A DNA stretch of 64,000 bases from Apostichopus japonicus (lineage: Eukaryota > Echinodermata > Holothuroidea > Aspidochirotida > Stichopodidae): NCBI RefSeq assembly GCF_037975245.1, contig NC_092572.1:21998489-22062488 (forward strand). Reading direction: 5' to 3'. The translations under genes were made by a program, and so were the position numbers. Positions 532 through 36,436 of this stretch are shown piece by piece. Below the pieces are notes generated by a model. The model was not told the origin of the DNA. It worked only from the letters and a program-made list of their open reading frames with translations, and did not search any database. Within the stretch, counting starts at the first letter, position 1. Every line of letters begins with the position of its first letter.

Positions 532-1195
532 CTGTGTTTCTCCTCATATGTGTGTAAGTTTCAGCAGCAGTGCCTTTGTGTAATATCCCAAGCCAACGCT
601 CTCGCATCATGTCCTTGTTCAGCTGTACAACAAAAGCCACATCTTTTCTGTCGAATTCCCTAAGCTTTTGTGTTTCCGGATCAGTGTCTTCTTTATCCAT
701 GCTCATATACTGGTCTGGATTTTAGGGTAAATAAATTTTATAGAGACGAAACAGTTCTCATCAACCATAGAAAAAATGTTTCGAAATAATAATATTCGAA
801 AATTGGTCAAGAGTGGAAGACAGATGTTTACGACGCTAAACAGCCACAAATGCATAAGACGGAAGCTCAGTGGCGTATTGCTGAAGCGTGTTCCTTAAGT
901 TCATATTGGATATTATCGGGATAAAGACAATATCCCTAAGAAATAAGTCCATAGCATTTGCCAGTCTGTGGTACAGTACGGACTCGAATCCATTCTCTAT
1001 GGACTAGGTATTGGATTCGAACACAAGTTGGCTTATAGACTGGACGTATCGCGGACTCAGGGACCCCAAAGCTCGGACTTCAGAGTTCTGGCGAGTCATA
1101 AATAACTTATGTCCCCTCCATTTCAAGGTTCTTTAGCATAATCTATAGAGTGGCTGCATAGTTATATAGATACGACTTATATCATATATATATAA

Positions 1196-1229
<34 letters not shown>

Positions 1230-4200: not shown

Positions 4201-7200
4201 AACGACCGAAAAGGTGTGACTAGCTTTGAATGTGTAAATTATTTTAATATAACTGTTAAAGGTCACGAAGCTCGTGTACTTCAAACTTGATGAGTCCAAA
4301 CTTTTGGGAGGAGATTTGGAACTCTTTGGATTTCCTGCTTGTGTTTCCTTTTCTCCATTTTAGTTTTGTTGCTCTTACGTTATGTTTGTTACACCTTGCT
4401 GAAATCGGCTCCAATTTGGAAACGGCTTCACCAATTTCAGACCGACTTTGGTAGTTCATTGAGGTATGAACCCGAAATACAGTCTCAATAAACTAGAACA
4501 TACATCTCAAGAACAGAATCGAACATATGTTCAAACGTACCAAGATAATATTTGGTGACATTGTCAACAGGCGTAAGTACAAAATCTTGGGTTTGGGAAA
4601 CTTCTCGTCTGTTTGAAAAAGAGTTGAACAAAATATATTTACTCTAAGTATGCCAATGAAAGAGAGACAAAACTATTGGTGTATAGTTTAAAATCAAGAT
4701 TATACTAATCTCTTGAATACTACGTCTACCTATGGCGTTTATGCCAAGATCTACTTCGTGTGCAATTGTTGACATAATATATGTATATACAGAGAAAGCG
4801 CCGATATTTTCTCTCTCAGGAAAATTGCCGAAAGGCAACATGAGAACAGCTTTTTCGATATGTTATCAATCAGAATCTTGTGGCTTTGATATAACAGAAT
4901 ATAAAAGGAAGTACATGATGTGAAAAAACTTGGGAAAATGTATTCAATTGTAGACCACTCTAAGGCTTCCAAGAGCAACGTTTACTGATGAGAATTGATG
5001 CTTGTTTTCTAAAACGTTTCGCTCTCGTAACTAAAATGAATTGAGATGCCATGAGTAGTCAACCTGTCACAGTTATCCATCTTGGTGTAGGGTTTAGCTA
5101 GTAAGAGCTTCAACAAGGACATAGTGATCACATACATTTGACTACTAACTGCTTAATTCAATGCAGAAATGTCAGACTTTCTTCATTATGACGGACATTT
5201 GAATCAACTTTTGCTCATAATCATTCTTAAGCAAAAATTGAATGTTTTACTCCATATGTGTGTGTTTACTTACATACTCGATTGACTGAAATGCTATGGA
5301 AAATAGATACATAAATAAACAATAACTGATTAAAATATTAAGAGAGTGAGGCAATGGAAACATATTAAATAATATAAAACATAGTTACCGCACCGACCTA
5401 AGGCTAGCGTACCGTGAAAAACATCTTTCTGGAAAAAGAGAAATTTTATGAGTTTACTTAAAGGAAAGTTGTGACTGTAATCATGAGTTTTATGGCTTAA
5501 ACTTGACTGAGATGTAAAAATCCTCAAACCAAGGTGTCCATTAAAAATGTTGCGTATTAGTTGTTGCGTATAAGTTTAGGCATTTAAATGTTAATTATGA
5601 ATAAATGAAGGAAATAGAGATATAAGAATGCAGAAGGAAAGGATGAAGAATCCGAAGTTACGATGTGTCGAATACTGCAAAACGTTTAGGCTTCACTTTC
5701 AGTAAGAAGTCAAGTCTAGTGCATTCGGCGCTGTAACTTATTACAGTCTGCTCGAGACCAAGACTGAAAACAGCAGAGATGTGTTACAGACGTGTCGTGT
5801 GATATTTTGGCATTACTTGGTTTAAATGTATAAAAAGAACAACCCTGCTTTTGTTAAAGTTTACATTACAATTACATCAATTTAGTTTATCCCGATTCGA
5901 CGCAGACTAATGTTTTACTTACGAAGTGTCCAGGAAGCTGGAAAATTTCCAAATACTGAAAGGCCTATACAAAATCGTCGTTACAGTATAGCAACCCGTA
6001 CTTGAAATGAGCTAATAAATAACTATACGCACTGTTTTATACGTTGGATTGCATCATTCATATTCAAAATGTTAATTATTCAATTGTTTACAATGAAGTT
6101 CTATCAAGTGCAAGTCGAAACAAAAAGCATTCAGCCATTAAAACTATTATCAATAGAGATACTTGCTCTGAGTTGACCTGGTGAATATAACAGCAAGGAT
6201 AAAGGTAGCACACACTACCAAGGCGTAAGTCATCCAGGAATTATCACTCCGAGATATCGACGAGTTTTCTGTCAGAAAGGAACCAAATTAATCGCCAAAA
6301 TAAATTTAGTTGTGCTATTAACATAAATAAATTAAAATCCGCAGGCCAAATAAATATAAGAAATGAAATATCTGCGGATAACTACAATCACGCATAACCA
6401 AAGACATAAATAAAATGTGTGATTGGTAGAATGTTCACAATATAAAAAATAACATTAGTTAGGTCATAAAACTAATGTTTCAGATAAGTAAAAATAAATG
6501 AACTACGTTTATTTGAGAAATGCGTCTTAAAATTGCAATGGACATGGGAGACGAAGATACCACAAAAATATATTTTGAAAAGGCAAAATTGCTATACAAA
6601 AAGACAACAGCCGTTTTTCACGTGACCCCCTTTACTTACTTTCCGTTTCTACACTGACGATGCTGCTCACGTCAATATTACCGAGGGCGTTGCTAGTTGT
6701 ACACCTGTACATTCCATTGACGTAGTTGTCTTTACTTGGCAACTGAAATTCCCACAATTGAGTTGTAAGGTTTGACTTGTTCAGAGGTTTTAAGTCAATT
6801 GTTTGCCATTCAAACATATCATCTAACTTCTGAAGGAAAACATCCGGTGTTGGATTACCCTCCACCATGCAGATAACCAACAGGATGTCTGCATCATTAG
6901 CAACATTTATAGTGGATGAAGAAACCATTTGGACGGTAGGTGGATCTGTTTAAGGGGAAGAAACGGTGGTATTTCCTTGTTCTAGAAATATCATTTTCTT
7001 GAGCTAAATGAGCAATGTCAATTTAGAAAATAAAATAATATTTTGCTTTAGGTCAGCCAACAAAAAGCACAAGGAAGTTAAGAATGAATTATTCCACAGA
7101 AGTGCCGAAACTACACTTAGTTAATGACAAATAAGAACAGTTAACTCTGTTGAGTTCAACAAACCCTAGTTTTAAATAAAAAGGGAATTATCGGCATATC

Positions 7201-9338
7201 CTACGTTAATCAGTGACTGAAAAAAAGCATTAATCAGCTTTTACAAGTAATATTTCTTGCTTCGGACTGAAAATGGGGAAATCACCTTGTTTTTTCCAAA
7301 ATGATCCTTAGAGGATATCAACCTGGTTTTGTTTTGACAGTGACCAATATTTTTGTGTGTACCGTTATGAGGTGTAGACGGAAATTCTGTTCCTCAGAAA
7401 GGTACACATTCATGTCAAATTCTTTCAGTGTAGAACATTCAAGAGTAAAAGATGGTTGTATAGAGCACACTTACACCAAATATTTAACATCTGTTTGGAT
7501 ATACCCTTCCAGTCATCATTCGCGACACAAAATAACTCCTTATTATGTTGTGTGCGAACGGGTCGAAAGAATGCAAAGCTACATAGATGCGACAAATGGT
7601 AACTGATGTTAGTCTGCGTGTAATAAGTTACAGGGGAAAATGTTATGTTGTCTAGAATCCAGGAAAACTCAACACTGGTCGATATAGGTGTAACATCAAC
7701 ACAGCAAACTGCTGTAAGCGTCTCGTTTACTATGATGGACTTGTTTGCTCTAAGCTCCGTCTGACCTGTTCATCAATAATCAAGATTATAATATGGTAGC
7801 GTTTGCATGCAAAGTTACTTTTTTTGTCATCAGAACACCCGATACACACAGAGAACACAGATACTACTGTAAATCTTAAAGTTTTTTACCAAAGTAAAAA
7901 GCGGATGGTGCTATAAATCGGTAGCATGTGCTATTAGGATCACAGTAAGGACTGAGGATATCTGTTATCGCAACAAATCCAGTTGTTGGGGTTTGTTGGG
8001 ATTACACATACTGTCAGTTCTTACTGTAATCCTAATACTAGCGCATGCTCCCGATTCATCAGATTTGTCAGCACAATCCCGTTTCAACTGTGGTACAAAG
8101 TTTTAAGATTTACAGTAATTACTGTAATCTATGTGTGAAACGGCTGATCAGAATTTAAAAAAAACTGATTTCAATCCAAAATACATTCAACTTCTGTAAC
8201 AAACCCACATTGTAGCTATACTGATTGCTTTAGTTAAGCATCGCAACTATATAAAAAGAAAGATATTTCTCTTTATTAGTTTGTAAAGTTATAAAACGAT
8301 TAGTTATGAAAAGTTATGAAATGACAAACGCTAATTTAATTTGGAAATCCTCATAGGTATATCAAATGGCATATGTACATAATATAAATTTATTGATCTA
8401 TTTGTTACTCAACATGTTTTTTCTCTCTATCATATTGACCAGGTTATTCCTTCTGGTAGGTGCGCTTACCGTAAACGTTAAGCAAAATGTTTTCTTTCCA
8501 CATCTTCAGGGATCCTGTGTACATCACACATGAATACCTACCAGCGTCACTGAAAGAAATATTTGAAATCCACAATGAGGCAGATCTGCCATCGTCTGAT
8601 CGTTTTGAGGTGAAGCGGCTGTCCTGGTTGTAAGATTTATTCAAGTGACTGACAAGAGGATCCAATAAAGTCTGATTCTCGAAATACCACCAGGATGTCA
8701 CATCTTCTCCGGTTAAGTTATTCGTGCATGACAGCTTCGCGCAACCGCCGATTGCCTCTGTCTGTATTTTGATACCAAGGCAGCCTAGTATTGTAGAAGA
8801 GAAATGTTATTTAACCAATTCAACAGAGACTTGATCGCATGTTTTTCGTTTGCTTTTTGCGTTTCCGTCTGTCAACGATATTTATGAATTCATTTGACCG
8901 ACCTGTATGTTCGTTATATTCTATGAGTATTTTAATTTTTAATTTTTATTGCCTTACATCAGTTTGATATCTGCTTGCTCAATCTGTCAACTCTTCTTTC
9001 AACTCTTTCAATGACAAATGGTATTGTAAGAGACTTATTGAACTAATAAAGTTATATTAATATAATACCCTGCATTTGCCCAAGAAACTTTCAAAAAACA
9101 TTCTTAAAAATGAGATCTAAGCAATTTTTATACATGGCAAGCGATAAACTGCGCAAAAAGGCCAAAGAACTAAATTGTTCATCAGAGAAATGTTCAGTCT
9201 AACTTCCGTATACTTAAAGGTAGAAAATTAACAAACTTTGTTTAAAGAAATGCCTTCTTCTCTACGGTTACCTGTAAGTAGGTCGCCCTGGAGGATAAAG
9301 TACGCCATCGTCAAAGCCGCTACTTCATTAGAGACCAT
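532..9338 (-). CDS. Ig-domain receptor pseudokinase, gene A (3' end outside window)
   Basis: First member of the array; transcription runs leftwards and the kinase exons after 532 are off the edge. Coding exons seen, in transcript order: 9338-9272 (signal-peptide-like start), 8784-8470 (Ig1), 7765-7475 (Ig2), 6945-6640 (Ig3), 6268-6167 (membrane segment), 5428-5389 (juxtamembrane), tentatively 4334-4267, then 714-532 (start of the kinase-like domain). All firm exons have AG acceptors and GT donors except the GC donor after the membrane exon, and keep phase 1 through the Ig exons. Ig domains show the Cys-Trp-Cys pattern; Ig3 ends in the typical YRCT-SNALG form. The kinase-start exon contains RERWLGILHKGT, a degraded glycine loop. 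The signal exon differs from those of B and C. An RTE LINE lies in the intron before the kinase exon. Extracellular ligand unknown; function is inferred from domains only. Confidence 0.75.
1170..1260. repeat. AT-rich (TA)n microsatellite
   Basis: About 90 bases of nearly pure TA dinucleotides with ATA interruptions, immediately before the 5' end of the LINE copy. It may have been the insertion target. Confidence 0.85.
1262..3290 (+). mobile_element. 5'-truncated RTE/Bov-B-like LINE with dead reverse transcriptase
   Basis: A non-LTR retrotransposon copy of about 2 kb. Open pieces at 1428-1643, 1847-2233, 2237-2875 and 2835-3281 together give the linker, reverse transcriptase and C-terminal region. 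Recognisable blocks are TGFRKGRGTRHQIANLRW, FIDYSKAFDCVD and GVRQGCILSPYLFNLY; the catalytic YADD box reads YTDE. The endonuclease is missing. The ORF is broken by a stop after TGA 1643, a TAG at 2231, and a 16-bp tandem duplication at 2813-2844 that shifts frame. The 3' end carries GGGGTCGGACACGACTCGAC, resembling the known Bov-B/RTE tail, followed by AAGTTAAC-type repeats. It lies antisense in the gene A intron. RTE clade is inferred from the tail and RT motifs. Not functional. Confidence 0.85.
3291..5388. other. Gene A intron sequence
   Basis: AT-rich intron between the LINE and the juxtamembrane exon. Apart from the tentative exon at 4267-4334 I see no coding pattern, repeat family or RNA gene. 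Confidence 0.6.
4267..4334 (-). other. Tentative juxtamembrane exon of gene A
   Basis: On the minus strand, an acceptor (AAGCAG) precedes 68 open bases that end at a GT donor (CTTC then GTGACC). Entry phase 2 and exit phase 1 are exactly what is needed to join the 40-nt exon at 5428-5389 to the kinase exon at 714-532. B and C carry an 89-nt exon at the corresponding place, and the peptide here is not clearly alike. Phase and position support it; sequence similarity does not. Confidence 0.35.
7830..8165. mobile_element. Fold-back (imperfect palindrome) miniature element
   Basis: The left half (ACTGTAAATCTTAAAGTTTT, ATTAGGATCACAGTAAGGAC) reappears inverted in the right half (AAAACTTTGTACCA read in reverse, ATTAGGATTACAGTAAGAAC read in reverse). 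The arms are about 150 bases and diverged. It sits in the intron between Ig1 and Ig2 of gene A and is absent at the same place in B and C. No coding capacity. Confidence 0.55.
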
Positions 9339-11481: not shown

Positions 11482-14400
11482 TTAATTGGATACTTTATAG
11501 ATTTCTTTGTTATAGATATCAGGCTGGGGTTCCATTGCTGATGATGCTGCACCTGTGCCAGCCTGAAACAGAGCAAACCAATAGGAAAAGGTAAACAAAT
11601 AAATTTCTCAAAGACCATGTCTGGAGGAAATGACATTAAAATGTATCTTTATAAACTGTTCATGTCTAGAATCAAGCTTGAAATACTTCTTTTGCAAACT
11701 AAATGAATTCAGATAGGTCCATATGCATATGCAGTTCCTAGCGACATTGTGTGCCAGTGCATCTCATGAACCCTTTACAGCTGACAGGCTGAGTACAGAC
11801 TTATTATATCGTTTAACGTTGTACTTTGCGATGACGCGCAATGTCTTACAAAGTTATGGTAATGTATATTATGGTAGTTCATACTTTATCAATTCAATGT
11901 AGTTAGTTGTCTTGAGATTAACTAACTTCAAGGGAAAATACTACACTATATAAAATCAGAACGATAAAAAAAAAACTTTTGTTCTCGCACTTTCATGTTT
12001 TTCTTGCTTTCATTTTTCTTATTTGCTCTTTGTTGCACATTTGTGTTACATTTATCAGTTACAACTATAGCTTTTACTTTCTCAAATTTGTAAACTTATT
12101 TGTGGATTGTTCAAAGTTGAATTGTTTCATGACAGACTTTCGTCGTTATTTTTGATTACTTGCGTGTAATTACTTTTACTTGTATTCTTAGTTTTACATC
12201 GCACCTGTTGATTTGTCGTTGCCATGTAAGTCTCTGTCGTACTTTGTAAATATTCATGAAGCTCATCGAAGCTTAAACGAGATTGTTGATCCCACTGCCA
12301 GCAAAGTGACATTGCTTCATACCTATAAATAGAATCAATAAAAGAGTTGCTGCAATCAGATATTTTCAGGTTATTGAAGTTATCGTTGTCTTCAGTATCC
12401 TACTAGGTAAAGTTAATAACAGTTTGGAAATGTAAAACAATGCCAAATGCGTTTATTGATACCTATGTTTACAGCGGCCGTACGCAAACCGTCAGTCTAT
12501 GGTATGTGTTTGGAGTGTGAACAACCAATGTGCATCCAAACATAGTAGTTTATGTATTTTTGACGTTTTTTCAGTAAAATGGCGAGTTTATCATAACTTC
12601 TAGAAGTGTGTCCTTGCATCAACCAAATAAGTTAGCTTAACCACAATGTCGGACATATTTTTAAAAACTATTTAGATGTTGTACAAACGTCTTGGCCTGT
12701 CAAGCTCACTTACGCCAGCATAATTCATGAAAGGCCTAAATTCTTAAACATAAAGCACATACATTACTTTTTTGGTAACTTCATGTACACATTTGTTTCT
12801 CTACAAATTTGAAAAAAAATTGTAATATAAATATTTTAGTGCAAAGGTCACAATTAGAGTCAGCCATTAACTGAGCAGCATAATGATATCGAAAGCTTAT
12901 TAAACTGAAAGCTGATCGTTGATGACAAGTTTTAACTTACATTTGTCCAGGACAATTGCCAGGCCGTGTTAGTTTTCCTAAAACGTCTTTTGGTTTTAGT
13001 ATGTCTTTATATTGTGGTATTTTAGCACCTACAATAAAAATGGAGCACAAAAAGACATAGCAAGATCGCAGAACTGATGTGTCAACATCTATAATGAAAC
13101 AACCCTATTGACTAATGCAAAATATTGTGTTAATTAAATTCTGAATTATAATAAGTTAGAAATATTATCCACTTTCAGATGGTTTTCATAGTAGAAGCTC
13201 TGAATAGATAGTATTACTGTTCATCTTAAGTAAAAACTTATCGTGAAGAAATAAATTGAATTGTTAATTTTCAGTCTCAACAACACTGCATATTTCCCGT
13301 TTATATTCTGACCATGTTTTGTATTAAATCCTTTACTGTTAATATCATAACAACGTAACAATTGTATAGAATAAACATATGTCAGAATATAATGGCTTTC
13401 TCCATATGTGTGCATGATGCAGATTGTACAACTAGTAGGTATTCTAGTACGGTCTTATTCGATCTACGATCTTCTAGACTGAGAAAAACACGACAACACA
13501 AATGTCAACTATAGAAAGCTTTACAAACAAATCATAAATATTCTGAATAAAAGCAATACTTAATACCTCTATGTGAAAGGAACGGTAATGCAAAATAATA
13601 CTTACCATACGAAAATATTTCCCACAGGACAACACCAACAGCCCAGAGATCGCTTTCTCGTGTATATTCTCCTTTTCGCTTCGCTTCCGGTGGGAAATTC
13701 AAATGAACTATTCCATTATTCTAAAATAATAGAGGAAATGCATTAAACGAAAACTAGATAACAAATATAGAAATTTTGTTTTACTTTGAATCGAATTGTA
13801 AATTTTTCTGGCGGATGTAATAAGAGTTATTAGAGTATATATCATGCAGCGTTAAGCGAAACACAAGTCGAGTTTCCATAGTAATTTTTCATATCAAGCA
13901 ACAAGAAATTTTAATGAATTTGTATAAGGCAGCTTAAGTCACGAATTTTGATACATGCAGGAGCTTACCTTTTCAAGTTCCTCTTTAAGTCTGCCTCTTG
14001 AACACATTACGTAACAAAAGTCATAAAGTTTACAAGAAAAGGAAGAGTTTCCAGTTTGAGAAATAAGTAGTTTCTCAGTACTTAATCCGGGATGTATCCA
14101 CTGAAAAATTCATGAAAAAAAGAACCCAGAAATTTGAAAAATGATTAGTCAAGAAAGTTTTAGAAGACACAAACTTTGCATTTCTCAAAGGATATTTGTA
14201 CACAACGAAATTCAAGTAATTTTAAAAACATATCAAGAAAATAAAAACCGGAATATAATTCTTACATGTACAGTAGTTGGACTATACAACTTACATTCGA
14301 AGTCATCATTTCAAATTTAGTAACACTCACATATGTGATACTTTTTACAACTATTGGAATATTGCTACTACAAATCAGGATGTTATTTCGCAGGATTTTA

Positions 14401-22016: not shown

Positions 22017-23828
22017 CAACATGGAGGCACTTGCCCCACCACCCAACAATTTAGCTTCCCTTCCAAACAAGGACAACTGTTCCTCCTCGTAATCCTCTCT
22101 TGCGCGCCACCTCTATCTCGCTCTCTCTTTCTCTTCTCTCTATTTACAGGCAAACTGTTTGCAAGGCAGTTAATTTGAGTAAATTTGCTAGCAAAAAATG
22201 TTTATTTTACCCAGTGTTCCTTCTAATTAACGCGCTAAAACCTGGATATTCAGATATTCCCGTGGAAGGAAGTGGGTCCGTTCTTTGTCTAATATTTCGC
22301 TCCTGTCTGGAGGTGTCCAGGTTCATCATTATTTCATTTGCGTACACATTTTTGTCAAGGAAGAAATTCTCCATCTGAATGTAATTATAAGTAGACCTAT
22401 TAATTTCAGGTGACATGCGGGTGAATCGAAACTACTGAAACTGGATGAAATTAAAACTTTTGAAGACTTAATTACACTTCAGAAGAAGTATTGTGCTCTA
22501 TTAACTGAGCTACTCGATCCACAGTTTTTTCCTTTGCTGGAGTGAACAACAGTACCTTGCAGGCAGGTCAACCAAGACCCACACCCCTTTGCATCCCGTA
22601 CTGCAGGAAAGTGCAAGCAATGGTCTTGAAGATAAATTCAGCTGAAATGGATTGTATCAATGGGAATGTATCAATGGGAATAAACAAAGTATACCTGTTC
22701 AATTGAAGTATGTGTTTCCTAGTCGAGTATATTATGCGTGTTCTAAGTTCTCACCAGAACATTGGTTCTGGCTATCAAGTACCACAGTGCGAGTACTGTT
22801 TTCGGGATTTGGAGTACAAGTGTCCAAGTGCTGCTTTTAAATCTGAGCACCGACTACGAGAATTGTTTCATCCAAGTGATAGGTCACATAATCAAAACCC
22901 AACATTTTGGCCGTAACATGCACGTCAAAATGGTAATATAACCGAAACCCTACAACCCATTAAGGATAACAGACAGAGTATTAATTATAGTCCTTGATTA
23001 AAGGAAATCAAAAGACAAAGTTGTCATATCGGTACGAATAAGTCTGTCACGACTTCCAGCTAGGCCTTTGTTATGTTAATTCGTACTTAATTCAGTTGGA
23101 AGAAGGTACGATTAAAGTAGGGGTTGATTGGAAATCTACAGAAAAAACAGATCCAATCAATCTAAATAAACGATTAATAGTTCCCGTTGAATTCATGTTG
23201 GTTTATTATATCTATTTCTCTTAATTAATGTTGGATTATAAAAAGATCAATCAAATTATGATATACAGCCTTGTATGGTAAATAAAAATAATGATTATAA
23301 GATCGTTCTCTTTCGAACATAATTCCAGTTCTGAAGAGCCTGTGCGATTGGGATATACACTTGCTGTGTAGACTAGAGTGAAGCTATATACGACGATGCA
23401 TCATTAACCATTTCCCCCACTCTACTCACAAAGTGTGACTACTTATTAGCACATAGCTCCAAAGAGCCAATCAAAAGTGAAGCCAATAAATATCAGCTGC
23501 ACGAGTGTAAATATCTGGATGGAACATATGTGTCCTAAACTCACATTGCTCTGGAAGAATTTTATGCTCAAGATCAAGTAAACAACAAATTATTCTAAAC
23601 GAGCGTGAGACCAGAGGAGTCAATGTCTTCCAGGGATATATTTCAAATCGGAGGATATCTTCATGTTGGCTATAAGGGGCTTACAGAGTTAATGTAATAT
23701 ATTCCAGACTAATCAATGGCACTAAACAGTAAGATCAGTGTAATTTTCCCAAGGCTGATGACGTCAAAGGTCAGGGCTCAAAGGTCAAACAGTACCTTAT
23801 TGATAATTACGTGTGCATATTGCTAGTG
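22017..23828. other. Intergenic region between gene B and gene C
   Basis: Second copy of the sequence at 9617-11481, carrying pyrimidine tracts. No open gene. It contains the 5' flank of B only near the junction, and otherwise what was the 3' flank of the ancestral gene. Confidence 0.55.
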
Positions 23829-26800
23829 TTAATTTGATACTTTATAGATTTCTTTGTTATAGATGTCAGGTTGCGGTTCCATTGCTGATGCTGCTGCACG
23901 TGTGTCAACCTGAAACAGAGCAAACCAATACGAAAATGTAAAAAAAAAAAATTCTTAGAGACCATATCTGGAGGAAATGACATTAAAAATGTATCTTAAT
24001 AAACTGTTAATGTCTATGAAGCATAAAATAACTTCTTTGGCAAACCAAATTAATTCAGATATGTTAATATGCATATGCAGTTCCTAGCGACATTGGGTGC
24101 CAGTGCATCCCATGAACCCTTTACAGCTGACAGGCTGAGTAAAAGACCTTATTATATCATTTAACGTTATTGCATGTACTTTGCGATGACGAGCAATGTC
24201 TTACAAAGTTATGGTAATGTATATATGGTAGTTCATACTTATCAATTCAATTTAGTTAGTTGTCTTGAGATTAACTAACTTCAAGGGAAAATACTACACT
24301 ATATAAAATCAGAACGATCAAAAACTTTTGTTCTCGCACTTTCATGTTTTTCTTGCTTTCATTTTTCTCATTCGCCTCTTTGTTGCACATTTGTGTTACA
24401 TTTATCAGTTACAACTATAGCTTTTACTTTCTCAAAAGTTGTTAACTCATTTGTGAAGTTTTCAAAGTGGAATTGTTTCATAATAGGTAGTCGTCGTTAC
24501 TTTTGGTCACTTGCGTGTAACTACTTTACTCGGCCTTTTGGCTAAGATCATATGTAGTACATGTTCCCTTTCAAGGGGAATGGTGATGCACACCCGACGA
24601 TGATCACACAGTCACAGTTCCGATGCAAGGGGACTGGGGTTTAGAGCGGATCAGTCGTTCGGTAGTTAGGTTTTCGTGCCCAGGTTCATTCCTGGGCGAC
24701 TTTTTCTTAAAAAGTACTTGACGTATATTCTTAGTTTAACATCGCACCTGTTGGTTTGTCGTTGCCATGTAAGTCTCTGTCGTGCTTTGTAAATATTCAT
24801 TAAGCTCATCGAAGCTTAAACGAGATTGTTGATCCCACTGCCAGCAAAGTGACATTGCTTCATACCTATAAAAAGAATCAGTAAAAGAATTGCTGTAAAC
24901 AGATCATTTGAAGTTTATTGAAGTTATCGTTGTCTTTAGAATCCTACTAGGTAAAATTAATAATGGTTTGGAAATGTAAACAATGCCAAATGCGTTTATT
25001 AGTACCTATCTTCAGCGCCGTACACAAACCTACAGTCTATGGTATGTGTTTGGAATTTGAACAACACATGTGAATCCAACAATAGTAGTTTATGTAGTGT
25101 TGTCGTTTTTCCAGTAAAAAAAAGGAAGTTTATCATTAACTTTTTGAAGTGTGTCCTTACATCAACCAAATAAGTTAGCTTAACCACAATGCCGGACATA
25201 TTTTAATAAACTATATATATGTGGTACAAACGTGTTGGCCTGTCAAGCTCATTTACGCAAGCATAATTCATTATAGGCTTAAATTCTTAAAACATAAAGC
25301 ACATAAATGACTTTTTTGGTACCTTCATGTACACATCTGTTTCTTTGAAAATTTGAAATACACTTACAATATAGAAATATTATAGTACAAAAGCCACAAT
25401 TAGAGTCAGCCATTAACAGAGCATTATAATGATATCGAAAGCTTATTAAGCTGAAAACTGATCGTTGATGACAATTTTTAACTTACATTTGTCCAGGACA
25501 ATTGCCAGGTCGTGTTAGTTTTCCTAAAACGTCTTTTGGTTTTAGTATGTCTTTATATTGTGGTATTTTAGCACCTACAATAAAAAAGGAGCACAAAAAG
25601 ACATAGCAAGATCGCAGAACTGATGTGTCAACATCTATAATGAAACAACCCTATTGATTAATGCAAATATTGTGTTAATTAAATTGTGAATTATAATAGG
25701 TTAGAAATATTATCCACTTTCAGATGGTTTTCATAGTAGAAGCTCTGAATAGATAGTATTACTGTTCATCTTAAGTAAAAACTTATCGTGAAGAAATAAA
25801 TTGAATTGTTAATTTTCAGTCTCAACAACACTGCATATTTCCATTTTGTATTCTGACCATGTTTTGTATTAAATCCTTTACTGTTAATATCATAACAACG
25901 TAACAATTGTATAGAATAAACATGTGTCAGAATATAATGGCTTTCTCCATATGTGTGCATGATGCAGATTGTACAACTAGTAGGTATTATAGTACGGTCT
26001 TATTCGATCTACGATCTTCTAGACTGAGAAAAACACGACAACACAAATGTCAACTATAGAAAGCTTTACAAACAAATCCTAAATATTCTGCATAAAAGCA
26101 TTATTTAATACCTCTATGTAAAAGGAACGGTAATGCAAAATAATACTTACCATACGAAAATATTTCCCACAGGACAACTCCAACAGCCCAGAGATCGCTT
26201 TCTCGTGTATATTCTCCTTTTCGCTTCGCTTCCGGTGGGATATTCAAATGAACTATTCCATTATTCTAAAATAATAGAGGAAGTTCATTAAACGAAAACT
26301 AGATAAAAAATATAGCAATTTTTGTTTTACTTTGAATCGAATAGTAAATATTTCTGGCGAATATAATAAGAGTTATAAGAGTATATATCATGCAGCGTAA
26401 AGCGAAACACAAGTCGAGTTTCCATAGTAATTTTTCATATCAAGCAACAAGAAATTTTAATGAATTTGTATAAGGCAGCTTAAGTCACGAATTTTGATAC
26501 ATGCAGTAGCTTACCTTTTCAAGTTCCTCTTTAAGTCTGCCTCTTGAACACATTACGTAACAAAAGTCATAAAGTTTACAAGAAAAGGAAGAGTTTCCAG
26601 TTTGAGAAATAAGTAGTTTCTCAGTACTTAATCCGGGATGTATCCACTGAAAGATTCATGAAAAAAAGAATCCAGAAATTTGAAAGATGATTAGTCAAGT
26701 AAGCTTTAGAAGACACAAACGTTGCATGTCTCAAAGGATATTTGTACACAACGAAATTCAAGTAATTTTACAAACAAATCAAGAAAATAAAAACCGGAAT

Positions 26801-29800
26801 AAAATTCTTACATGTACAGTAGTTTGACTATACAACTTACATTACCAGATTACCAGATAAATTTAGTAACACTCACATATGTGATACTTTTTACAACTAT
26901 TGGAATATTGCTACTATAAATCAGGATGTTATTTCGCAGGATTTTATTTCGTCATCACTCTCAATGTATTAACCAACACCAGACTTCCAACTGTTTAAAA
27001 CGTTTTGTTTATCTGTAATTCATATTTGATAAGATTTGGCTCGATGCAATCTAAACCAGTGTGTTCTTTAAGTAATTGACAATACACCTTATGACAAATT
27101 AACCGATCAGTTGGAAAATAAGACATCATCACATATATTTAATATTATTCGATAGATCAACTTTTACAAGACTAGTTTGAAAGAACTTGGCACTTCTATG
27201 AACCTGGTTCTAGCGAAAATGGATCGATGTACCGATCTTCATGACTCCATACTTTACATTATAACGCAATAATTTGTATCAACCCCGAAGATATACTGAA
27301 TGTAAAAACACTCATTTATTTCCATATTAAGATATCTTACACCATTCTGATGAAGAAACTTCATGCCGTCGATAACGTTAGATGCAAATGTCAGAAAGTG
27401 CTGCGGTACCGGTTCCATTGCATTCCCGTAGAGAAAGCTTTGTCCAAAAGTAATTTCAAGATATGTTCTGACGGTGCCAAAAGCCATATATTCTTCCAAG
27501 CAGTATGTAACACCTGCAGTATATAATAATAATAATTTTGACCAATATTAACACTACATAATGTAATAGAAATGTCATTTTCTTGTATTTTATCATGCAC
27601 AAACTATATTCGAATACATTTATGAATGAACCAACATTTTCATCATGCATTATTAATGTTGATAAAATATCATGCTTACAACCACTGATGATGGTGAACT
27701 TAAATGATGAGAGCAAAAATCTACCTGACTTCTCAAAAACTCCAAATGTTTTGACAACAGTTTCGTTTTTGGGAAGGGTGGCAATGTGTCGAAGGAAGTA
27801 TTCCGTTTCCTCGGAAGCTTTTGTAACATCTGTAAAAGAAAAATATCAAGTACAAAACAGACGGTCTGCATTGTAAACTAAGGCCAATCCCCTTTAACAT
27901 ATAGCTAAGATAACTTCATATTCTTTAAGTCTTAATATACAACCAGTAGTACGAGTGTGTGTAATCGTTGTATAATCTATATATAAAGTCATTAAAACCA
28001 GGCTAACACTGTATTGTAAGTTACTGTAAGAGTAAGATTGCACACCATTCTCTTGGTTGTAATGTTATTGTTATAGCCACGCGATGTTGGCATACCATCG
28101 TATTGTTACTTTCTTTGTATATGTTAATTTTCACGTATTGTTGTAGTTGTATGCATCTCAGTTATGTTGGTAATTGTGTTAGTGTAATTGTGTGTTCTTT
28201 GTTAAGTGTGTAAAAGTAAGTTGGCCTGACGTTTCGATCCTAGCAGGATCTTCTTCAGAGGCTAAATGACAAGTTACAGTAACAGAGGGGACAAAAAAAC
28301 CCCTTTGTCCCCTCTGTTACTGTAACTTGTCATTTAGCCTCTGAAGAAGATCCTGCTAGGATCGAAACGTCAGGCCAACTTACTTTTACACATTCTATTA
28401 CACAGGCTCTCTAGTGGATAAGCAGTTTGCTAACAGTTTTATTTCATTTTCTTTGTTAAGTGTCTTAGATATATATTGTAAGGAGCTGAGGCTCGGGTAG
28501 TCTGGATTGCGTCTCATTGGAATGGATATGGATTGGGCCGACGCACATAGTCGTATATAGTTAATAATTACATATTAGAAAGAGTTCCACGCCGTCTCAG
28601 TTTCGTGCTTAGTTGTGTACATATAATTTAACTGTCTCGCACTACTACGACAGGATGCATGTCGTAGCCGAATTAGCTGGTGAATGAATAATCATATATA
28701 GTAACGGTGCGTATAATGACACGGTGCAAGTTCTCAGAACATACCTGTACAACTCCTCATGTGTGTATAGGTTTCAGTTACAGTCCCTTTATTTAATATT
28801 CCAAGCCAACGCTCTCGCGTTGTTTCCGGGTTCAGTTGTGCAACAAACGTTACATACGCTCCGTCGAATTTCTTCAGCTTGTGTGGCTCCTGTGTATGGT
28901 CTTCTTCATCTATGCTTGCATACATGTCTGGATCATTAAATGGAAATAGTGATAGCTCATGAAGTGAGAATGTGGATATATAATAAACCAATCTAAACGA
29001 CCAAATAATCAAACATTTGCCATGCAGGGGACTGCTGATTTTACAACGTTAAGCAATCATAACAGCATAAGGAGGAAGCTTATAGGTGACATAGTACGCA
29101 TAGGATAACTATAAGCAGCATGTTTGTCTTGATATTTTATATTCTATGCAGAAAGAACGCTTTATAAATGTTTCTACAGCTTTTTCACTGTTCGTATTTC
29201 TTTTTTTTCTTTGGGTGGTGGCGTTTTTCACTTAAATTTTCTGGAATGATTTTACCTTTCAGGCAAAACTAATCAACTATTTTTTATAATGAGTTTAATT
29301 TGATTCAATGAACGAGATCCTACAACGAATGAACATTACCACGCATACAACAATAATACGTACCAAGATAATTTTTCTCAACAGTCTCCGAAGAATTTAC
29401 AAGAGTATCGATACGTTGAAGTGCAAAATCTGGGGTTTGCGGAAGATCTCGCCTGTCGAAAAGAGTTGAAAATTTGCATCACTTGTTGTATAGTATGAAA
29501 GAAAGACCAAAAAATCAATTGTGAAATACTTGCTATATAGTAATGAAAGAAAGACCAACAAATACAAAGGTGCATTACTTGTTATATGGTAATGAAAGAA
29601 AAACCTACACAATCAAATGTGCATCACTTGTTATATAGTAATGAAAGAAAGACCTACACAATCAAATGTGCATCACTTGTTATATAGTAATGAACGCGAG
29701 ACCTACACAATCAAATGTGCATCACTTGTTATATAGTAATGAAAGAAAGACCAACAAATACAAAGGTGCATCACTTGTTATATAGTATTGAAAGAAAAAC

Positions 29801-32800
29801 CTACACAATCAAATGTGCATTACTTGTTATATGGTATTGAAAGAAAATCCTACACAATCAAATGTGCATCACTTGTTATATAGTAATGAAAGAAAGACCT
29901 ACACAATCAAATGTGCATCACTTGTTATATAGTAATGAACGCGAGACCTACACAATCAAATGTGCATCACTTGTTATATAGTAATGAAAGAAAGACCAAC
30001 AAATACAAAGGTGCATCACTTGTTATATAGTATTGAAAGAAAAACCTACACAATCAAATTTGCATTACTTGTTATATAGTATTGAAAGAAAAACCTACAA
30101 AATCAAATGTGCATTACTTGTTATATAGTAATGAAAGAAAGACCTACAAAATCAAATGTGCTTCACTTGTTATATAGTATTGAAAGAAAGACCTACAAAA
30201 TCAAATGTGCATCACTTGTTATATAGTAATGAAAGAAAGACCTACAAAATCAAATGTGCATCACTTGTTATATAGTAATGAAAGAAAGACCTACAAAATC
30301 AAATGTGCATCACTTGTTATATAGTATTGAAAGAAAAACCTACAAAATCAAATGTGCATCACTTGTTATATAGTAATGAAAGAAAGACCTACAAAATCAA
30401 ATGTGCATCACTTGTTATATAGTATTGAAAGAAAAACCTTCAAAATCAAATGTGCATCACTTGTTATATAGTAATGAACGAGAGACCTACACAATCAAAT
30501 ATGCATCACTTGTTATATAGTAATGAAAGAAAAACCTACAAAATCAAATGTGCATCACTTGTTATATAGTAATGAACGAGAGACCTACAAAATCAAATGT
30601 GAATCACTTGTTATATAGTTATGAACGCGAGACCTACACAATCAAATGTGCATCACTTGTTATATAGTAATGAAAGAAAAACCTACAAAATCAAATGTGA
30701 ATCACTTGTTATATAGTAATGAAAGAAAGACCTACAAAATTAAATGTGCATCACTTGTTATATAGTAATGAACGAGAGACCTACAAAATCAAATGTGCAT
30801 CACTTGTTATATAGTAATGAAAGAAAGACCTACACAATCAAATGTGCATCACTTGTTATATAGTAATGAAAGAAATACCAACAAATACAAAGGTGCATCA
30901 CTTGTTATATAGTAATGAAAGAAAGACCAACAAAACCATGTACAATTTCGCAGCTGTGCTGCCGGTGATGTGTTCTACTTGTGGTAGCTATTCAATGATC
31001 TAGCTGACATTGTCTAGTATTTATCATTTAAATGGTTAGTATTGTCGTCTTATCTATATAGTTCATCATGTCCACTTTATCGTTCGACGCCGGGTGAAAC
31101 CATCCTTACTTGGATGTTTTATATTTTATTTCATTGAGATATTTCGATGCCTTCCTCATTGTTATTCGTTCGTAGTCATTCAATGTATCATAAATGATAA
31201 GATATTAAACATGTACTAATTACGGAATATAATCAATGCAAAAAAAAAAGGGAAAACGGTGATGAAAATTAAGTTAAATTAAGAGTATATCAAAATGAAA
31301 AAAGAAATACATTACCTTACTGCTCTTAGATTAGAGCACCACGACAAACATTTCTCTGAAAATACATGAAAAATTGATTAAATAACGAAATGCTTGATTG
31401 TGAACATAATCATATGCAACGACGGTAACAGCTTCACTTGTTCACCGTGTATTATTTTCATCTTTATTAATGTGACCATTACGCACGTTATGAAAAACTA
31501 AATTGGTTTAATGAATACATCGTTATGCAACTAACCTTAAATAAAAAGGTTTATTATCCTCTTTTGTTAAGTGTGTCATTCAGTAACTAAGCACTTTTGT
31601 AACGATGGCTTAATTATTTAATTAATGATTGTTAAAAGTAAACTGCTTTTAGTTGACCATTTTATAAGGAAGTGCAAACACATGTGATAAGTCTAAACGC
31701 ATAAGTGTAACAATTATATAGCTGTTATTAAAAAAAAATGGATACTTGCTCTTAGTTGACATGGTGACAAGCAAAGCAAGGATGAAGGTAGCAATCACTG
31801 AGATGGTATATATTATCCAGGAACTATCACTCCGTAATATCGACGAGCTTACTGCCAGAAAAATAATACATTAACTGTTAAGTTCAATTCAATGATGTTC
31901 TTCGGGGAAGTAAAATAATATTAGGCCACCCTCTTCCCCATCGCCGCTTCCACACAAACATTACCCACCCTCCCCCTCCCCTCCATCACGGGACATCACA
32001 TATTTGATGATTTTTGTAAAAGTAGGTAATAGGTTGGAAAATCCAGAGCAGTTGAAAATCTTCCAGCCTTTATCGGGATTCGAACCCAGGCCCGGGATTG
32101 CTAGATCTGCCATAACCCACAAACTATCGATTGAAGGAATATTCAAATTTGGAAAGTCGTCATTTAAACGAGGATGGTAACATTTTTTTTCGGATTAGAA
32201 ATGGATCGGAAATGCGATAATTTGAACAGCGCATTTTGAATTGTAGTATGAAATAGAAATTAGAAATCCCAAATACATATTTAAAGAGCTGTCGGTTGAA
32301 GTAGAAGTTAATACCGAGTAATTCATTAATGTGCCCTTACAATGCTTACATAATATCCTTTCCTGGCATAAACCGTTGACCGTTTTTCCTTATATCGATA
32401 TACGCAATAAAATAAAGGATTTTTTCATTATGGTTGTTGGAAAATGAAATATTTTTCGGTTAATAATTTTTTTAAGAGGTTGAGTACATCACATTAACTT
32501 ACCATCCTTTTCTACACTGATGATACTGCTCACCACAATATTACCGAGGGCGTTGTTAGCTGTACACCTGTACATTCCATTAACGTAGGTGTCTTTACTT
32601 GGCAACTGAAATTCCCACAATTGAGTTGTAAGGTTTGACTTGTTCAGAGGTTTTATGTCAATTGTTTTCCATTCAAACATATCATTTAACTTCTGAAGGG
32701 AAACATCTGGTGGGGGATTACCGTCGACTTTGCAGATAACCAACAGGATATCTGCATCATACGCAACATTTATAGTGGATGGAGTAACCATTTGGACGGT

Positions 32801-35800
32801 AGCCGGATCTGTTAAAGGAAAACAAAACATGAAATTCTCAATGTAAGATGACTGGGGTTGAAAGTGGATCAAATTGTTTGGTTTTCTTGACCAGATGAAA
32901 AAGCTGCATATGGGCATCAGGTATACTGTAAAGACAAGATCCTTGTTCAAACAGTCAACATTAACATTGGTCAGGGTTTGGATTATACTAAGGAAATTAG
33001 GGCAATAGGATTGGGGTTGAGATAAGGGGTTGTGGTTAGGTGTTGGTGTTTGGATAATGGTAAGGAGTTGATTGGTGGGGTTAGGCATTTAGGGTCGGGT
33101 GATAATACGGTGATTCGTAATCATAACTAAGAATATTATTGATGTGAACCATTAGTGATATATCTTGATGTACTGTTAGCCCGTGATACAATTTTAATAG
33201 CCATGATATTTTAAAGTGCTGAAAACCCCCCATATTTACTTCCAAAGGAAAATTCAATTGGAGTAAAAATCTTTCCTGGTAAATTTAACTAAAAAAAGGA
33301 GACATCCACAGGGTTGCTGCAATGAAGTATATATAAACTGGTAAAATCAAATTGATTACTAAGACGATTAGATCTCCAATTCTGCAATGAGTTATCTACA
33401 AGAAAGTTGACTCATAACATTCCTTTAAAATTATAGTAACATAAGCTAGCTTAAAAATGAGACATTTAAGTGCACCTATTTGGATTTCTACAATGCTTCA
33501 CCACACAATATACAATATGTGTACATGTAATGTATGTAAATTGGGTGATATGGTTAGACAATTTCAAATTAGGAAGAGCAAATATAAATCTTAACAATTA
33601 ACGTATCCAGTATTAATCAGTGGAGGACCCGTTCTTGTAAAAGAGAAGGTTCTGTAAAAAATATACTCACACCAAACATTTAAAATCTGTTTGGACATTC
33701 CCTTCCGGCCACCTTCCACGTCACAAACTAAGTCTTTATTATGCTGTTTGCGGTCACTTTGAAACGATGCAAAGCTGCATAATCTCGATACACTGTCACT
33801 TAGGTTAGTCTGTGTATCATGCTCCACAGGTGTGAATGTAATTTCGTCTAGAGTCCAGGACAACTCAACAATCGTCCATATGGGAGTAACATCAACACAG
33901 CAAACTGCTGTTATCGTCTCGTTTTCTAAGATGGACTTGTTTGCTCTTAGCTCCGGCTGACCTGTTGTAGGAAGCAATATTGCAAGATATGATAGTTTCA
34001 ATGTACACATTTACTGTTTATCATCAACATATATCATATAAAGTAACATATAGGGTAATAAAGATAACTCAAAGTTCACATTTCAAAAGAAACTTATGAA
34101 AGTAATTTAACTTAGATATAAATTTGTACAACTGGTTTGTATCTTGTCTTCTCTTAGATACGGCGGAAGTCCAAAAATAGATATCTTAATTGTCGGTGCA
34201 GTTAAATAGCCAATAAAAGGCAGATGTTGTTTTCTATCAGTTAAGGCTTGTGTGATGCGCAAGGCGCAGCCCATCAAGTTCTTTGTCTAACAAGAGTACC
34301 ATTTTCGTGACTTTCACGCATGTATAACCTAAGCACGTTGACAGAGGGTCTCCGGATAGTGTCTGCAGCTAACGTCCACCACAAAGTAATTTCTGTAAGT
34401 CCTTTGAAAATGTAGTTGTACGTAAATCATTGATAAACGTATTTGGCGTGACCATCGTAATGTTTATTTAATTTTAAGAGTAGTAGCGTGTGTAACTGAC
34501 ATAACTAAGCCCTTATAGTTATTATCATTAGTTTGACAGGTCTCGCTTTCTTAGAATTTCTTTTATCTCCATAAGAAATAATTGACAAGTTAATTAAACG
34601 AACGATCTGGCATGAATCAGTCTTTGTGACGAATTTACTTCAATCGAAGTTTTTACATAAAATATCTTAGGACTAGGCTGACTTAACTATGCACACAACC
34701 TATGAACAGTACTGTGTTCATCGTACAACCTGTCCTAGAAGCAAGTCTGAATATTTTGGGAATTCTCTCGTTCTCTCTAGTAGAGGATAAATGCTTATAA
34801 AGTAGTGACTGCATTCTGGTATTGGCAGATGTTCGAAAGAGGAAGTGAGAGTGCACTCATATTTAATTATAACAGACTAGGTAACAGCAGATTGCCGGGG
34901 TCTTGAACAAGACTAAGTTTAAACATGTTGCATTGCGTTTTTGACGCAGTGGGTACGTTTTGCGTTATTGTTGCGGTGCGTTCGTTTCGCGCTATTGGTT
35001 CAATGCGTCTAAATTTCGTCGATTATTGTACTGAACTAGTATGTTAGGACAAGATTGAATACATTTACTCAGCTAACAGATAATGTGTTAGTCTGTTCTA
35101 GTACTTAGTCCCTTCCTTACGCTAGCTTGTTCATCGATTCTGTACTTTGATTGCATTAATATTTTGAGGCAAATCACATTGAAAATCAGGTGCAGAATAA
35201 GACCGAATAAAACTTTAAAGACATATATGTCCACTGTATTCATCTCTGGCTGTGCTTCATTGAAAACAAGGGAGACGTCTTGGGGTCGGCCAGCGTTACA
35301 ATATAAACTATAACGATTTAAGTTGTCAACAACCGATAGTTTGCATGTGAATATGTGATTTGACGGATGTATGTTTGTTATGTAAACAATAAATGCACCT
35401 TGTGGTTTAATTTACAGTTGTTTCTGTCGGAATAGGTCTGCATGTACTGCTGTACTTAACAGTGGCATGATAAGCATATTTAACAGACTATTCCCCATGA
35501 TTTGCTTACTGTAAATTTGCAGGAACATGTACTCTTTCCATAACCGTAATCCTGTATACATCACACACGAATACGTGCCGACGTCACCCACTGTAACATT
35601 TGTAATCTCCAATGAGGCAGATCTACCATCGTCTAATAGCTTTGATGTGTACCGATCATCCTGGTTATATGGTTCCTTGGTGTGGCTATGGACGGCATCA
35701 GTTATGGTTACATTCTCGAAGTACCACAAGGAAGTCACATCTTCTCCGGTGAAGTTATTCGTGCATGTTAGCTTTGCACAACTACCGATTGCCTCTGTCT

Positions 35801-36436
35801 GTGTTTTCATGCCAAGACAGCCTAATTTTTGAGAAGATAATCAAAACATTGCATTTATTCATTCCATTAATTCAATTTTTGATATGTTTGTTTTAGCTTC
35901 CGTCTCTCACCATCGAACTCATTAGAACGACCTGGTAGTTCCTTTTATTCGATATGTTATTTTATATTTCTTCTTTTGGGCGTTAATTAATTGGTACTTA
36001 TGCGATATACGGTATACTTGTTTGATAAATGTTCTCAGATCCTTTCTGTCAACATCAAAGCCTATCTATCCCACGCGTGATGAAAGCAGGCTTAATTAAT
36101 TAATAAGGTAATGTTAGTTAACCTGCATTTGCACAACAAAAAAAGAGCGATAACACATTCAATTGGTCAAAAGGAAAACCCATCATTGTCGATTGCAAAC
36201 ACCTAATTAGAAACAATTAACGTAGCTATACAAAGCCCAAGGTATTAATATATGTTCGTTAGAGAAAGATTAACAGCAGTAACGCTACCGTACAAGCAAA
36301 GGTGCGGATGAAAAATTAAAAAAAAACATGATTATCATTTTTCAAAGCGGTTACCTTCAAATATGAGAAAACACGCCAGAGTCCAGACGGCAGAAGTGAT
36401 CTTGTAAGGACAGGTAGCTGATAAATTGATCTTCAT
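23829..36436 (-). CDS. Ig-domain receptor pseudokinase, gene C (complete)
   Basis: Same 15-exon plan as gene B: 36436-36355, 35821-35510, 33961-33671, 32808-32503, 31851-31750, 31355-31316, 29452-29364, 28927-28745, 27829-27725, 27513-27341, 26646-26515, 26265-26151, 25574-25487, 24865-24748, 23909-23829. Total 2217 nt, 738 residues, all phases consistent. It differs from B by about 19 residues in Ig1, 16 in Ig2 and 13 in Ig3, but by only two or three across the exons from 28927 to 26515. It has the same kinase defects (WIHPGLSTEK, DFC, degraded glycine loop), so it is inferred to be a pseudokinase receptor. An extra T in the intron after 24748 makes an early stop if that donor is skipped. 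Insertions in its introns (U2-headed SINE, ribozyme element, minisatellite) do not touch coding sequence. A second possible first exon lies at 38425-38476. Confidence 0.85.
24529..24713 (+). mobile_element. U2-snRNA-headed SINE-like insertion
   Basis: Begins CTCGGCCTTTTGGCTAAGAT, identical to the 5' part of U2 snRNA, then a variant of the GUAGUA branch-site region (TGTAGTACATGTTC). The rest is not U2 and lacks its Sm site. It ends with a stable hairpin (GCCCAGGTTCATTCCTGGGC) and TTTTTC. The block is absent from the same place in gene B, so it is a recent insertion into the last intron of gene C. snRNA-headed SINEs are a known class; membership here is inferred. A decayed U2 pseudogene fused to unknown sequence is the alternative. 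Confidence 0.6.
28224..28262 (-). ncRNA. Hammerhead-ribozyme-like motif, minus-strand copy
   Basis: Exact reverse complement of the plus-strand motif at 28337-28375, in the left arm of the palindrome. Same core (CTGAAGA, GATCC stem, GAAACGTC). Confidence 0.5.
28337..28375 (+). ncRNA. Hammerhead-ribozyme-like motif, plus-strand copy
   Basis: Stem I GCCT/AGGC closes on both sides of CTGAAGA (28341-28347), a 5-bp stem II (GATCC-TGCTA-GGATC) and GAAACGTC, with cleavage expected after C 28371. ACGT is self-complementary, giving a minimal stem III that would work as a dimer, as known for Penelope-element ribozymes. One extra A (28348) between the core and stem II departs from the strict consensus, so activity is uncertain. 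Confidence 0.5.
29467..30936. repeat. 49-bp minisatellite in gene C intron, about 30 units
   Basis: Same unit and same intron as the array at 16687-17445 but about twice as long, with units such as CCTACAAAATCAAATGTGCA then TCACTTGTTATATAGTAATG. The unit order differs from B, so copy number changed after the gene duplication. Confidence 0.9.
32010..32140 (-). mobile_element. tRNA-derived SINE copy
   Basis: Orthologous to the copy at 18530 in gene B: the B-box GGGTTCGAATCCC in minus orientation followed by AGGCTGGAAGATTTTCAACT. It has decayed at the head. Confidence 0.55.
32910..33500. other. Intron block specific to gene C
   Basis: About 590 bases between Ig3 and Ig2 with no counterpart in B. 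It has a GT-rich stretch of irregular TTAGG/TTGGGG-like words (32960-33095) that resembles a degenerate simple repeat. No ends of a known element found. Confidence 0.4.
34040..35150. other. Intron block specific to gene C
   Basis: About 1.1 kb between Ig2 and Ig1 missing from B, where the intron passes directly from the shared CATCAAAA region to GAAAATCAGGTG. No open frame, terminal inverted repeat or SINE head is evident, so it is either an unrecognised insertion or a deletion in B. Confidence 0.4.

What the first reader, a model, noticed from the sequence alone, without database searches (positions are those of the whole stretch)
532..36436. Tandem array of Ig-domain receptor pseudokinases
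Three head-to-tail genes with a conserved 15-exon plan (shown fully in B and C): signal peptide, three Ig domains, membrane segment, degenerate tyrosine kinase, short tyrosine tail. I cannot name a characterised family with this exact make-up. An expanding family of variable Ig ectodomains over a conserved catalytically dead kinase could be an invertebrate recognition or immune-receptor system. The exons are seen; the function is inference.
Basis: partly seen in the sequence, partly recalled or inferred. Interest (0 to 1): 0.85.

Follow-up and report, generated by a model that had tools for sequence, protein, structure and literature searches.

The report
Huge family of dead-kinase immunoglobulin receptors
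Three neighbouring genes of an echinoderm (probably a sea cucumber) encode cell-surface receptors with antibody-like domains outside and a kinase that has lost its catalytic residues inside, and they belong to a family of at least 175 gene loci that I could not find described and that may be a recognition system.

Summary
Rebuilt models give two complete 15-exon genes (B, C; 738 codons each) and the start of a third (A; open beyond the window, 724 codons), head to tail on the minus strand: leader, V-set, C2-like and third Ig exons, membrane segment, tyrosine-kinase fold, tyrosine tail. The kinase lacks the beta3 Lys, alphaC Glu and HRD Asp; HRD reads HPG and DFG reads DFC. The genome is an echinoderm's. 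Four searches, three of them capped, give at least 175 loci with this exon. At 47 loci that I read, neither HRD nor DFG occurs. The dead kinase is under purifying selection, and exons appear to move between copies by gene conversion. None of the eight human receptor pseudokinases has these motifs (PMC13259870). Most likely they signal without catalysis, through a partner kinase. Immune or self recognition is plausible but untested. Ten literature searches found no description.

The parts
23829..36436 (-). gene C, 15 exons, 738 codons
   Evidence: spliced open frame, splice sites, Pfam
36355..36436 (-). C exon 1, leader peptide
   Evidence: leader judged by eye
35510..35821 (-). C exon 2, V-set Ig domain
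   Evidence: Pfam V-set 8.3e-9; PDB and fold matches
33671..33961 (-). C exon 3, C2-like Ig domain
   Evidence: C2-set_2 0.004, below cut-off
32503..32808 (-). C exon 4, third Ig domain
   Evidence: Ig_2 1.3e-4 on the frame, below cut-off; 1.2e-6 on the whole protein
31750..31851 (-). C exon 5, membrane segment, GC splice donor
   Evidence: membrane segment judged by eye
29364..31355 (-). C exons 6-7, juxtamembrane part (intron holds a 49-bp minisatellite)
24748..28927 (-). C exons 8-14, degenerate tyrosine-kinase domain
   Evidence: Pfam 3.2e-31; motifs
26515..26646 (-). C exon 11, HPG and DFC motifs
23829..23909 (-). C exon 15, tail with DIYNKEIYKVSN
11482..21444 (-). gene B, 15 exons, 738 codons
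20522..20830 (-). B exon 2, V-set Ig domain
   Evidence: Pfam V-set 6e-8
19581..19871 (-). B exon 3, C2-like Ig domain
19020..19325 (-). B exon 4, third Ig domain
18273..18374 (-). B exon 5, membrane segment, GC splice donor
12205..16149 (-). B exons 8-14, degenerate kinase domain
13061..16684 (.). stretch of B that is 95-99% identical to C, introns included; probable gene-conversion tract
   Evidence: sliding identity
532..9338 (-). gene A, exons 1-8; exons 9-15 lie outside the window
8470..8784 (-). A exon 2, V-set-like Ig domain
   Evidence: aligned with B and C
7475..7765 (-). A exon 3, C2-like Ig domain
6640..6945 (-). A exon 4, third Ig domain, probably converted from a B/C-like copy
6167..6268 (-). 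A exon 5, membrane segment, GC splice donor
532..714 (-). A exon 8, start of the kinase domain

Best explanation
A, B and C belong to a large, apparently undescribed family of single-pass immunoglobulin receptors whose tyrosine-kinase fold is kept but catalytically dead. Shown: the architecture, the loss of catalytic residues, the conserved HPG and DFC motifs, purifying selection on the dead kinase, many tandem arrays, and exon identities that point to gene conversion between copies. Inferred: the outer V and C2-like domains bind ligands that differ between copies; the dead kinase and its tyrosine tail act as a switch or docking platform that is phosphorylated by, or allosterically turns on, a separate active kinase. 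Inferred with less confidence: the germline repertoire serves recognition of microbes or of self and non-self.
For: Open 15-exon frames and Pfam domains. Beta3 Lys, alphaC Glu and HRD Asp kept in 0 of 9 aligned members, while the alphaF Asp and Trp are kept in 9 of 9. HP at 47 of 47 and HPG at 44 of 47 loci read. At least 175 loci, 149 of 150 exon matches carry no stop. Kinase change below neutral in the three pairs tested (p 1e-4, 0.002, 9e-10). Discordant exon identities. Human receptor pseudokinases that act through partners (PMC13259870, passages).
Against: No expression, ligand, partner or polymorphism data. Positive selection on the ectodomain was not shown: B-C dN/dS is 0.63, and the contrast with the kinase is absent in the A-F and A-B pairs. 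The loci were found with HPG-bearing queries, so active relatives may be under-sampled. Complete genes were shown only for A, B and C.
Confidence: 0.5

Rival explanations
1. Cell-adhesion or patterning co-receptors that work like PTK7: homotypic or Wnt-type binding outside, scaffold inside, with no immune role.
For: PTK7 is an Ig-domain receptor pseudokinase that makes homotypic contacts (PMC13259870, passage). Ig domains and a dead kinase are shared.
Against: At least 175 loci in changing tandem arrays is unlike the single-copy patterning receptors (recalled). PTK7's seven Ig domains and its HKD/ALG motifs are not met.
Confidence: 0.22
2. Receptors for self recognition between individuals or gametes (allorecognition or fertilisation), diversified by duplication and conversion.
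For: Tandem arrays with exon exchange between copies; Ig receptors serve allorecognition in Hydractinia (recalled).
Against: Nothing on polymorphism or tissue of expression is available; the kinase tail has no counterpart in that system (recalled).
Confidence: 0.18
3. A decaying array of pseudogenes left after loss of kinase function.
For: Catalytic residues are gone; LINE and minisatellite insertions in introns; the joined frame of F meets a stop after exon 14, its last exon not being identified.
Against: A, B and C are fully open; kinase change is below neutral in all three pairs tested; HPG and DFC are conserved across distant members.
Confidence: 0.04
4. An active kinase with unusual chemistry in spite of the missing residues.
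For: The DFG Asp is kept in 8 of 9 aligned members; some enzymes called pseudokinases proved active (recalled).
Against: Beta3 Lys, alphaC Glu and HRD Asp are lost in 9 of 9, and the catalytic-loop Asn in 8 of 9.
Confidence: 0.04

Closest known systems
PTK7/CCK4
   Same: Ig domains, one membrane pass (here by eye), catalytically degenerate tyrosine-kinase fold
   Different: Seven Ig domains, HKD and ALG motifs (PMC13259870, passages) against three or four Ig exons with a V-set first, HPG and DFC
Other human receptor pseudokinases (HER3, EphA10, EphB6, ROR1, ROR2, RYK, STYK1)
   Same: Dead or degenerate receptor tyrosine kinases that signal through partners
   Different: None has HPG or DFC in Table 2 of PMC13259870; no Fz or Kringle domain in C
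FGFR and FLT3 type Ig receptor tyrosine kinases
   Same: Ig ectodomain; a profile of five members scores FGFR2 and FLT3 kinases highest apart from one EGFR chain counted over two stretches
   Different: Those have active-site residues; C alone scores CSK, Lyn and insulin receptor highest, so kinship is open
Echinoderm germline receptor expansions (TLR, NLR, scavenger receptors, SpTransformer)
   Same: Large tandem germline families in echinoderms (PMC13428168, passages)
   Different: No kinase-bearing or Ig receptor family is among those named in the passages seen; immune use is unproven here
Hydractinia Alr receptors, amphioxus VCBP and IgVJ (recalled)
   Same: V-type Ig receptors of invertebrates; the C V exon matches amphioxus IgVJ-C2 at 6.8e-5
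   Different: No kinase domain (recalled); no chitin-binding module was reported for C

Membership tests
Receptor tyrosine pseudokinases (broad class) | tyrosine-kinase fold lacking essential catalytic residues | tested here: met
   Pfam 3.2e-31; beta3 Lys, alphaC Glu and HRD Asp in 0 of 9
Receptor tyrosine pseudokinases (broad class) | no kinase activity in assay | not testable with these tools
   sequence only
PTK7/CCK4 | seven Ig domains | tested here: not met
   three Ig exons in A, B and C; four in L011 and L014
PTK7/CCK4 | HKD catalytic loop and ALG in place of DFG (PMC13259870 Table 2) | tested here: not met
   HPG at 44 of 47 loci read, third position of DFG is Cys at 44 of 47
ROR1/ROR2 | Ig plus cysteine-rich (Fz) and Kringle domains | tested here: not met
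   Pfam scan of C lists Ig and kinase models, no Fz or Kringle
FGFR/VEGFR/PDGFR Ig receptor kinases | active HRD and DFG motifs | tested here: not met
   no HRD and no DFG at 47 loci read
FGFR/VEGFR/PDGFR Ig receptor kinases | common ancestry of the kinase domain | tested here: inconclusive
   profile favours FGFR2 and FLT3, single sequence favours CSK; no tree was made
Germline-diversified immune receptor repertoire | large multigene family in arrays | tested here: met
   at least 175 loci on 16 contigs
Germline-diversified immune receptor repertoire | diversifying selection on the binding domains | tested here: inconclusive
   dN/dS below 1 in the ectodomain of all six pairs; raised against the kinase only in B-C
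Germline-diversified immune receptor repertoire | expression on immune cells and response to challenge | not testable with these tools
   no transcript data held

The most novel reading that the evidence does not exclude
This echinoderm carries a germline repertoire of 175 or more Ig receptors built on one conserved dead kinase (HPG/DFC), diversified by tandem duplication and exon-scale gene conversion. It would be a main cell-surface recognition system that signals only by lending its dead kinase to a shared active one. The conserved GC splice donor after the membrane exon could also yield tail-less decoys: use of the GT four bases downstream leads to a stop soon after the membrane in A, B and C (read by eye).
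Probability: 0.3. Interest if true: 0.92.

Novelty: new variant of a known kind. Interest (0 to 1): 0.75.

Why it matters
The human genome has eight receptor tyrosine pseudokinases (PMC13259870); here one animal genome holds at least 175 loci of one type, and those examined at length carry Ig-like domains outside. If they recognise microbes or non-self, echinoderms would have a large Ig-based receptor repertoire whose signalling avoids catalysis in the receptor itself. The family is also a natural series in which a dead kinase is kept by selection while its outer domains change, so the open question of what a pseudokinase is kept for becomes testable by comparing members.

Tried and rejected
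A pattern search for the HPG codons alone gave numbers near its control (1334 forward and 1666 reverse; control 1344 and 1205) and was dropped. PTK7 or ROR membership was rejected on motifs and domains. Pseudogene decay was rejected on open frames and selection. That some members are active kinases was considered: none of the 47 loci read has HRD or DFG; the HGD/DFG arrays on C17, C18, C19 and C21 (L056-L059) and the HRD/DFG copy on C4 (L060) look like other kinases. Caveats: the loci were found with HPG-bearing queries; the whole-domain Pfam search scored 139 of 1266 candidates, so active relatives may be missed. No kinase exon was recognised in the fetched 10 kb at 3.68, 6.35 and 22.99 Mb (L014, L017, L015). 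Kinship of the kinase domain stays open (disagree; no tree was made). The spliced kinase domain was not folded, because the structure tool states that it takes unspliced translations of the window or of certain loci.
Full report
What is in the window. I rebuilt the three genes from splice sites and frames. B (11482-21444) and C (23829-36436) each have 15 exons and one open frame of 738 codons plus stop. A shows 8 exons in the window (532-9338); its other 7 exons lie just below the window on the same contig (window = C12:21998489-22062488), and the joined frame is open for 724 codons with the same tail. Internal acceptors are AG; donors are GT except that of the membrane exon, which is GC in A, B, C and the neighbour F. 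Exons 2, 3 and 4 are Ig exons of phase 1-1. On the spliced C protein Pfam finds V-set (9.1e-8), further Ig models (7e-9 to 1e-6) and PK_Tyr_Ser-Thr (3.2e-31); the middle Ig exon stays below cut-off. The V exon matches an antibody light chain (7.7e-6) and amphioxus IgVJ-C2 (6.8e-5) in the PDB by sequence. Its AlphaFold model (mean pLDDT 72, three sequences) matches Ig folds, titin/obscurin Ig first (7e-5) and PD-1 third. Leader and membrane segment were judged by eye.

The kinase is dead by sequence. I aligned nine members (A, C, D, L011, L013, L016, L018, L063, L064) with two HRD/DFG kinases of the same genome. The beta3 Lys is kept in 0 of 9, the alphaC Glu in 0 of 9 (F or Y in 8), the HRD Asp in 0 of 9, the catalytic-loop Asn in 1 of 9 and the DFG Gly in 0 of 9; the DFG Asp is kept in 8 of 9, the alphaF Asp and Trp in 9 of 9. 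The alignment is weakest in the N-lobe, so the beta3 and alphaC positions are less certain than the rest. The loss is patterned: the catalytic loop reads HPG and the next motif DFC. I read this exon at 47 loci: A-F, L011, L013, L016, L018, L064, L065 and the 35 loci L021-L055. HP stands at 47 of 47 and HPG at 44 of 47 (L035 and L064 HPC, L048 HPA). Cys replaces the DFG Gly at 44 of 47 (L041 and L048 DFW, L045 DFL); the Asp is replaced in L011 (N) and L065 (G). Neither HRD nor DFG occurs. The 35 loci were picked by me for spread from the matches, so they are not a random sample, and the queries carried the motif.

What organism. Contig C35 is the mitochondrial genome (16,099 bases). Its COX1 is open under tables 4, 5, 9 and 13; table 9 (echinoderm) puts Asn and Ile where I recall them in echinoderm COX1, for instance STNHKDIG and FGNWLIP. 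nad1 and nad2 lie on the same strand as cox1, and 22 contigs have matches at megabase positions (C1-C5 and C7-C23). From recalled gene orders and chromosome numbers this points to a sea cucumber rather than a sea star; the class is inference.

How many copies. Kinase exons of C find six close copies at C12 21.88-22.03 Mb (D, E, F, A, B, C) and others at 14.06-14.56 and 23.02-23.05 Mb (129 of 386 candidates scored). The ectodomain finds 109 exon matches at E 0.05 or less, 107 of them on C12 (108 of 204 candidates scored). Divergent members find many more (138 of 440 and 150 of 496 scored). Two queries with the 41-42-residue HPG exon each scored 150 candidates (of 251 and 245) and all 150 matched, 149 of 150 carry no stop. 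The HPG-exon matches that I took, merged within 1.5 kb, are 175 loci on 16 contigs: 86 on C12, 48 on C16, the largest array 15 loci at C12 0.57-0.98 Mb. This is a lower bound for exons, not a count of complete genes; the weakest matches have E near 0.005. A V-set-like exon and an HPG exon occur together again on C20 (L065). On C16 (L063) an Ig-like exon, a membrane segment and the HPG exon follow in order; on C4 (L064) an ectodomain without introns, with Ig-like cysteine patterns, precedes the membrane segment and an HPC exon (judged by eye). L011, L014 and L017 show four Ig exons, so three may be a reduction in the window's branch.

How it evolves. By Nei-Gojobori counts the B-C kinase has 6 nonsynonymous and 11 synonymous changes (dN/dS 0.14), the ectodomain 53.7 and 22.3 (0.63); the contrast has Fisher p 0.01 on rounded counts. 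A-F (0.30 ectodomain, 0.40 kinase; p 0.45) and A-B (0.38 and 0.30; p 0.38) show no contrast, nor do A-C, F-B and F-C by their ratios. Kinase change is below neutral in the three pairs tested (p 1e-4 for B-C, 0.002 for A-F, 9e-10 for A-B), while the B-C ectodomain alone is not clearly so (p 0.07). So the dead kinase is used, but a general fast-ectodomain, slow-kinase contrast is not established, and no ectodomain ratio exceeds 1. Between C and D the two outer Ig domains share 38-41%, the third 62%, and the separately matched kinase exons 54-73%. Exon identities conflict between parts of the genes. A is closest to F in most exons (87-96%), but exon 14 of A is 93-96% like B and C and only 86% like F, and exon 15 of A is 93% like both B and C. 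Exon 4 of A is as close to B (93%) as to F (92%), with dS to B of 0.13 against 0.95 and 0.51 in exons 2 and 3 (p 4e-6). B and C are 95-99% identical over 13061-16684, introns included, and 87.5-93.5% elsewhere. Gene conversion is the simplest explanation of all three; coding constraint does not explain the conserved introns.

What it does. Shown are anatomy, loss of catalytic residues, selection and discordant exons. Inferred are ligand binding by the outer domains and a non-catalytic switch inside. [quoted passage not shown] Arrays of likely active receptor kinases exist in the same genome (GxGxFG, VAVK, HGD and DFG in L068 and L069) and could serve as partners, but nothing links them. The immune reading rests on analogy alone.

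What is known. Table 2 of PMC13259870 (passage) lists the motifs of the eight human receptor pseudokinases; none reads HPG or DFC. The 2026 review PMC13428168 (passages) names TLR, NLR, scavenger receptor and SpTransformer expansions in echinoderms; the word kinase was not found in its main text. The tyrosine-kinome survey PMC8662651 (passages) names sponge, nematode and choanoflagellate specific families; the word echinoderm was not found in it. In the Chiridota genome paper PMC8913654 the term tyrosine kinase was not found (passages). PMC7586955 (passages) gave nothing on invertebrates. Searches that found no description. The library holds open-licence papers only; the sea urchin kinome paper (Bradham 2006, seen only as a reference) was not read, so a description there or elsewhere is possible.

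Verdict. A very large, apparently new family of Ig receptor pseudokinases is well supported; its use in immunity is a fair but untested guess.

Noticed in passing
window 1826-3281 (+): Remains of a non-LTR retrotransposon reverse transcriptase (RVT_1 2.7e-19 on 2234-2872) inside the long intron of gene A between exons 7 and 8.
   Followed up: partly
window 16686-17448 and 29470-30934: A 49-bp minisatellite in the intron between exons 6 and 7 of both B and C, with a 238-bp higher-order unit in B.
   Followed up: no
window 31746-31851, 18269-18374, 6163-6268: Conserved GC splice donor after the membrane exon; the GT four bases downstream would give a receptor cut off soon after the membrane.
   Followed up: partly
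window 46618-46890 (+) and 58500-58760 (+): Exons of a Vps26-like gene (1.4e-9) and a PRA1-family gene (2.3e-17) beside the array: ordinary neighbours.
   Followed up: partly
C17 13.17-13.61, C18 8.70-8.85 and 13.97-14.26, C19 8.83-9.14, C21 13.30-13.48 Mb: Other kinase arrays; the four copies read (L056-L059) have HGDLAARN and DFG and look active; no Ig exon was recognised by eye in L068 or L069.
   Followed up: partly
C4, C9, C14, C19, C20: Dispersed, near-identical kinase matches; the one read (L060, C4) has HRD and DFG and resembles FES/FER from memory.
   Followed up: no
C12 3.59-3.72 and 6.35-6.73 Mb (L014, L017): Further arrays of four-Ig exons of the same type for which no kinase exon was recognised within the fetched 10 kb; HPG-exon matches lie at 6.47 and 6.60 Mb.
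   Followed up: partly
L041, L045, L048: Members that read DFW or DFL instead of DFC, possibly a separate branch.
   Followed up: no
C29:14745-31219: COX1-like pieces on a second contig besides the mitochondrial C35.
   Followed up: no
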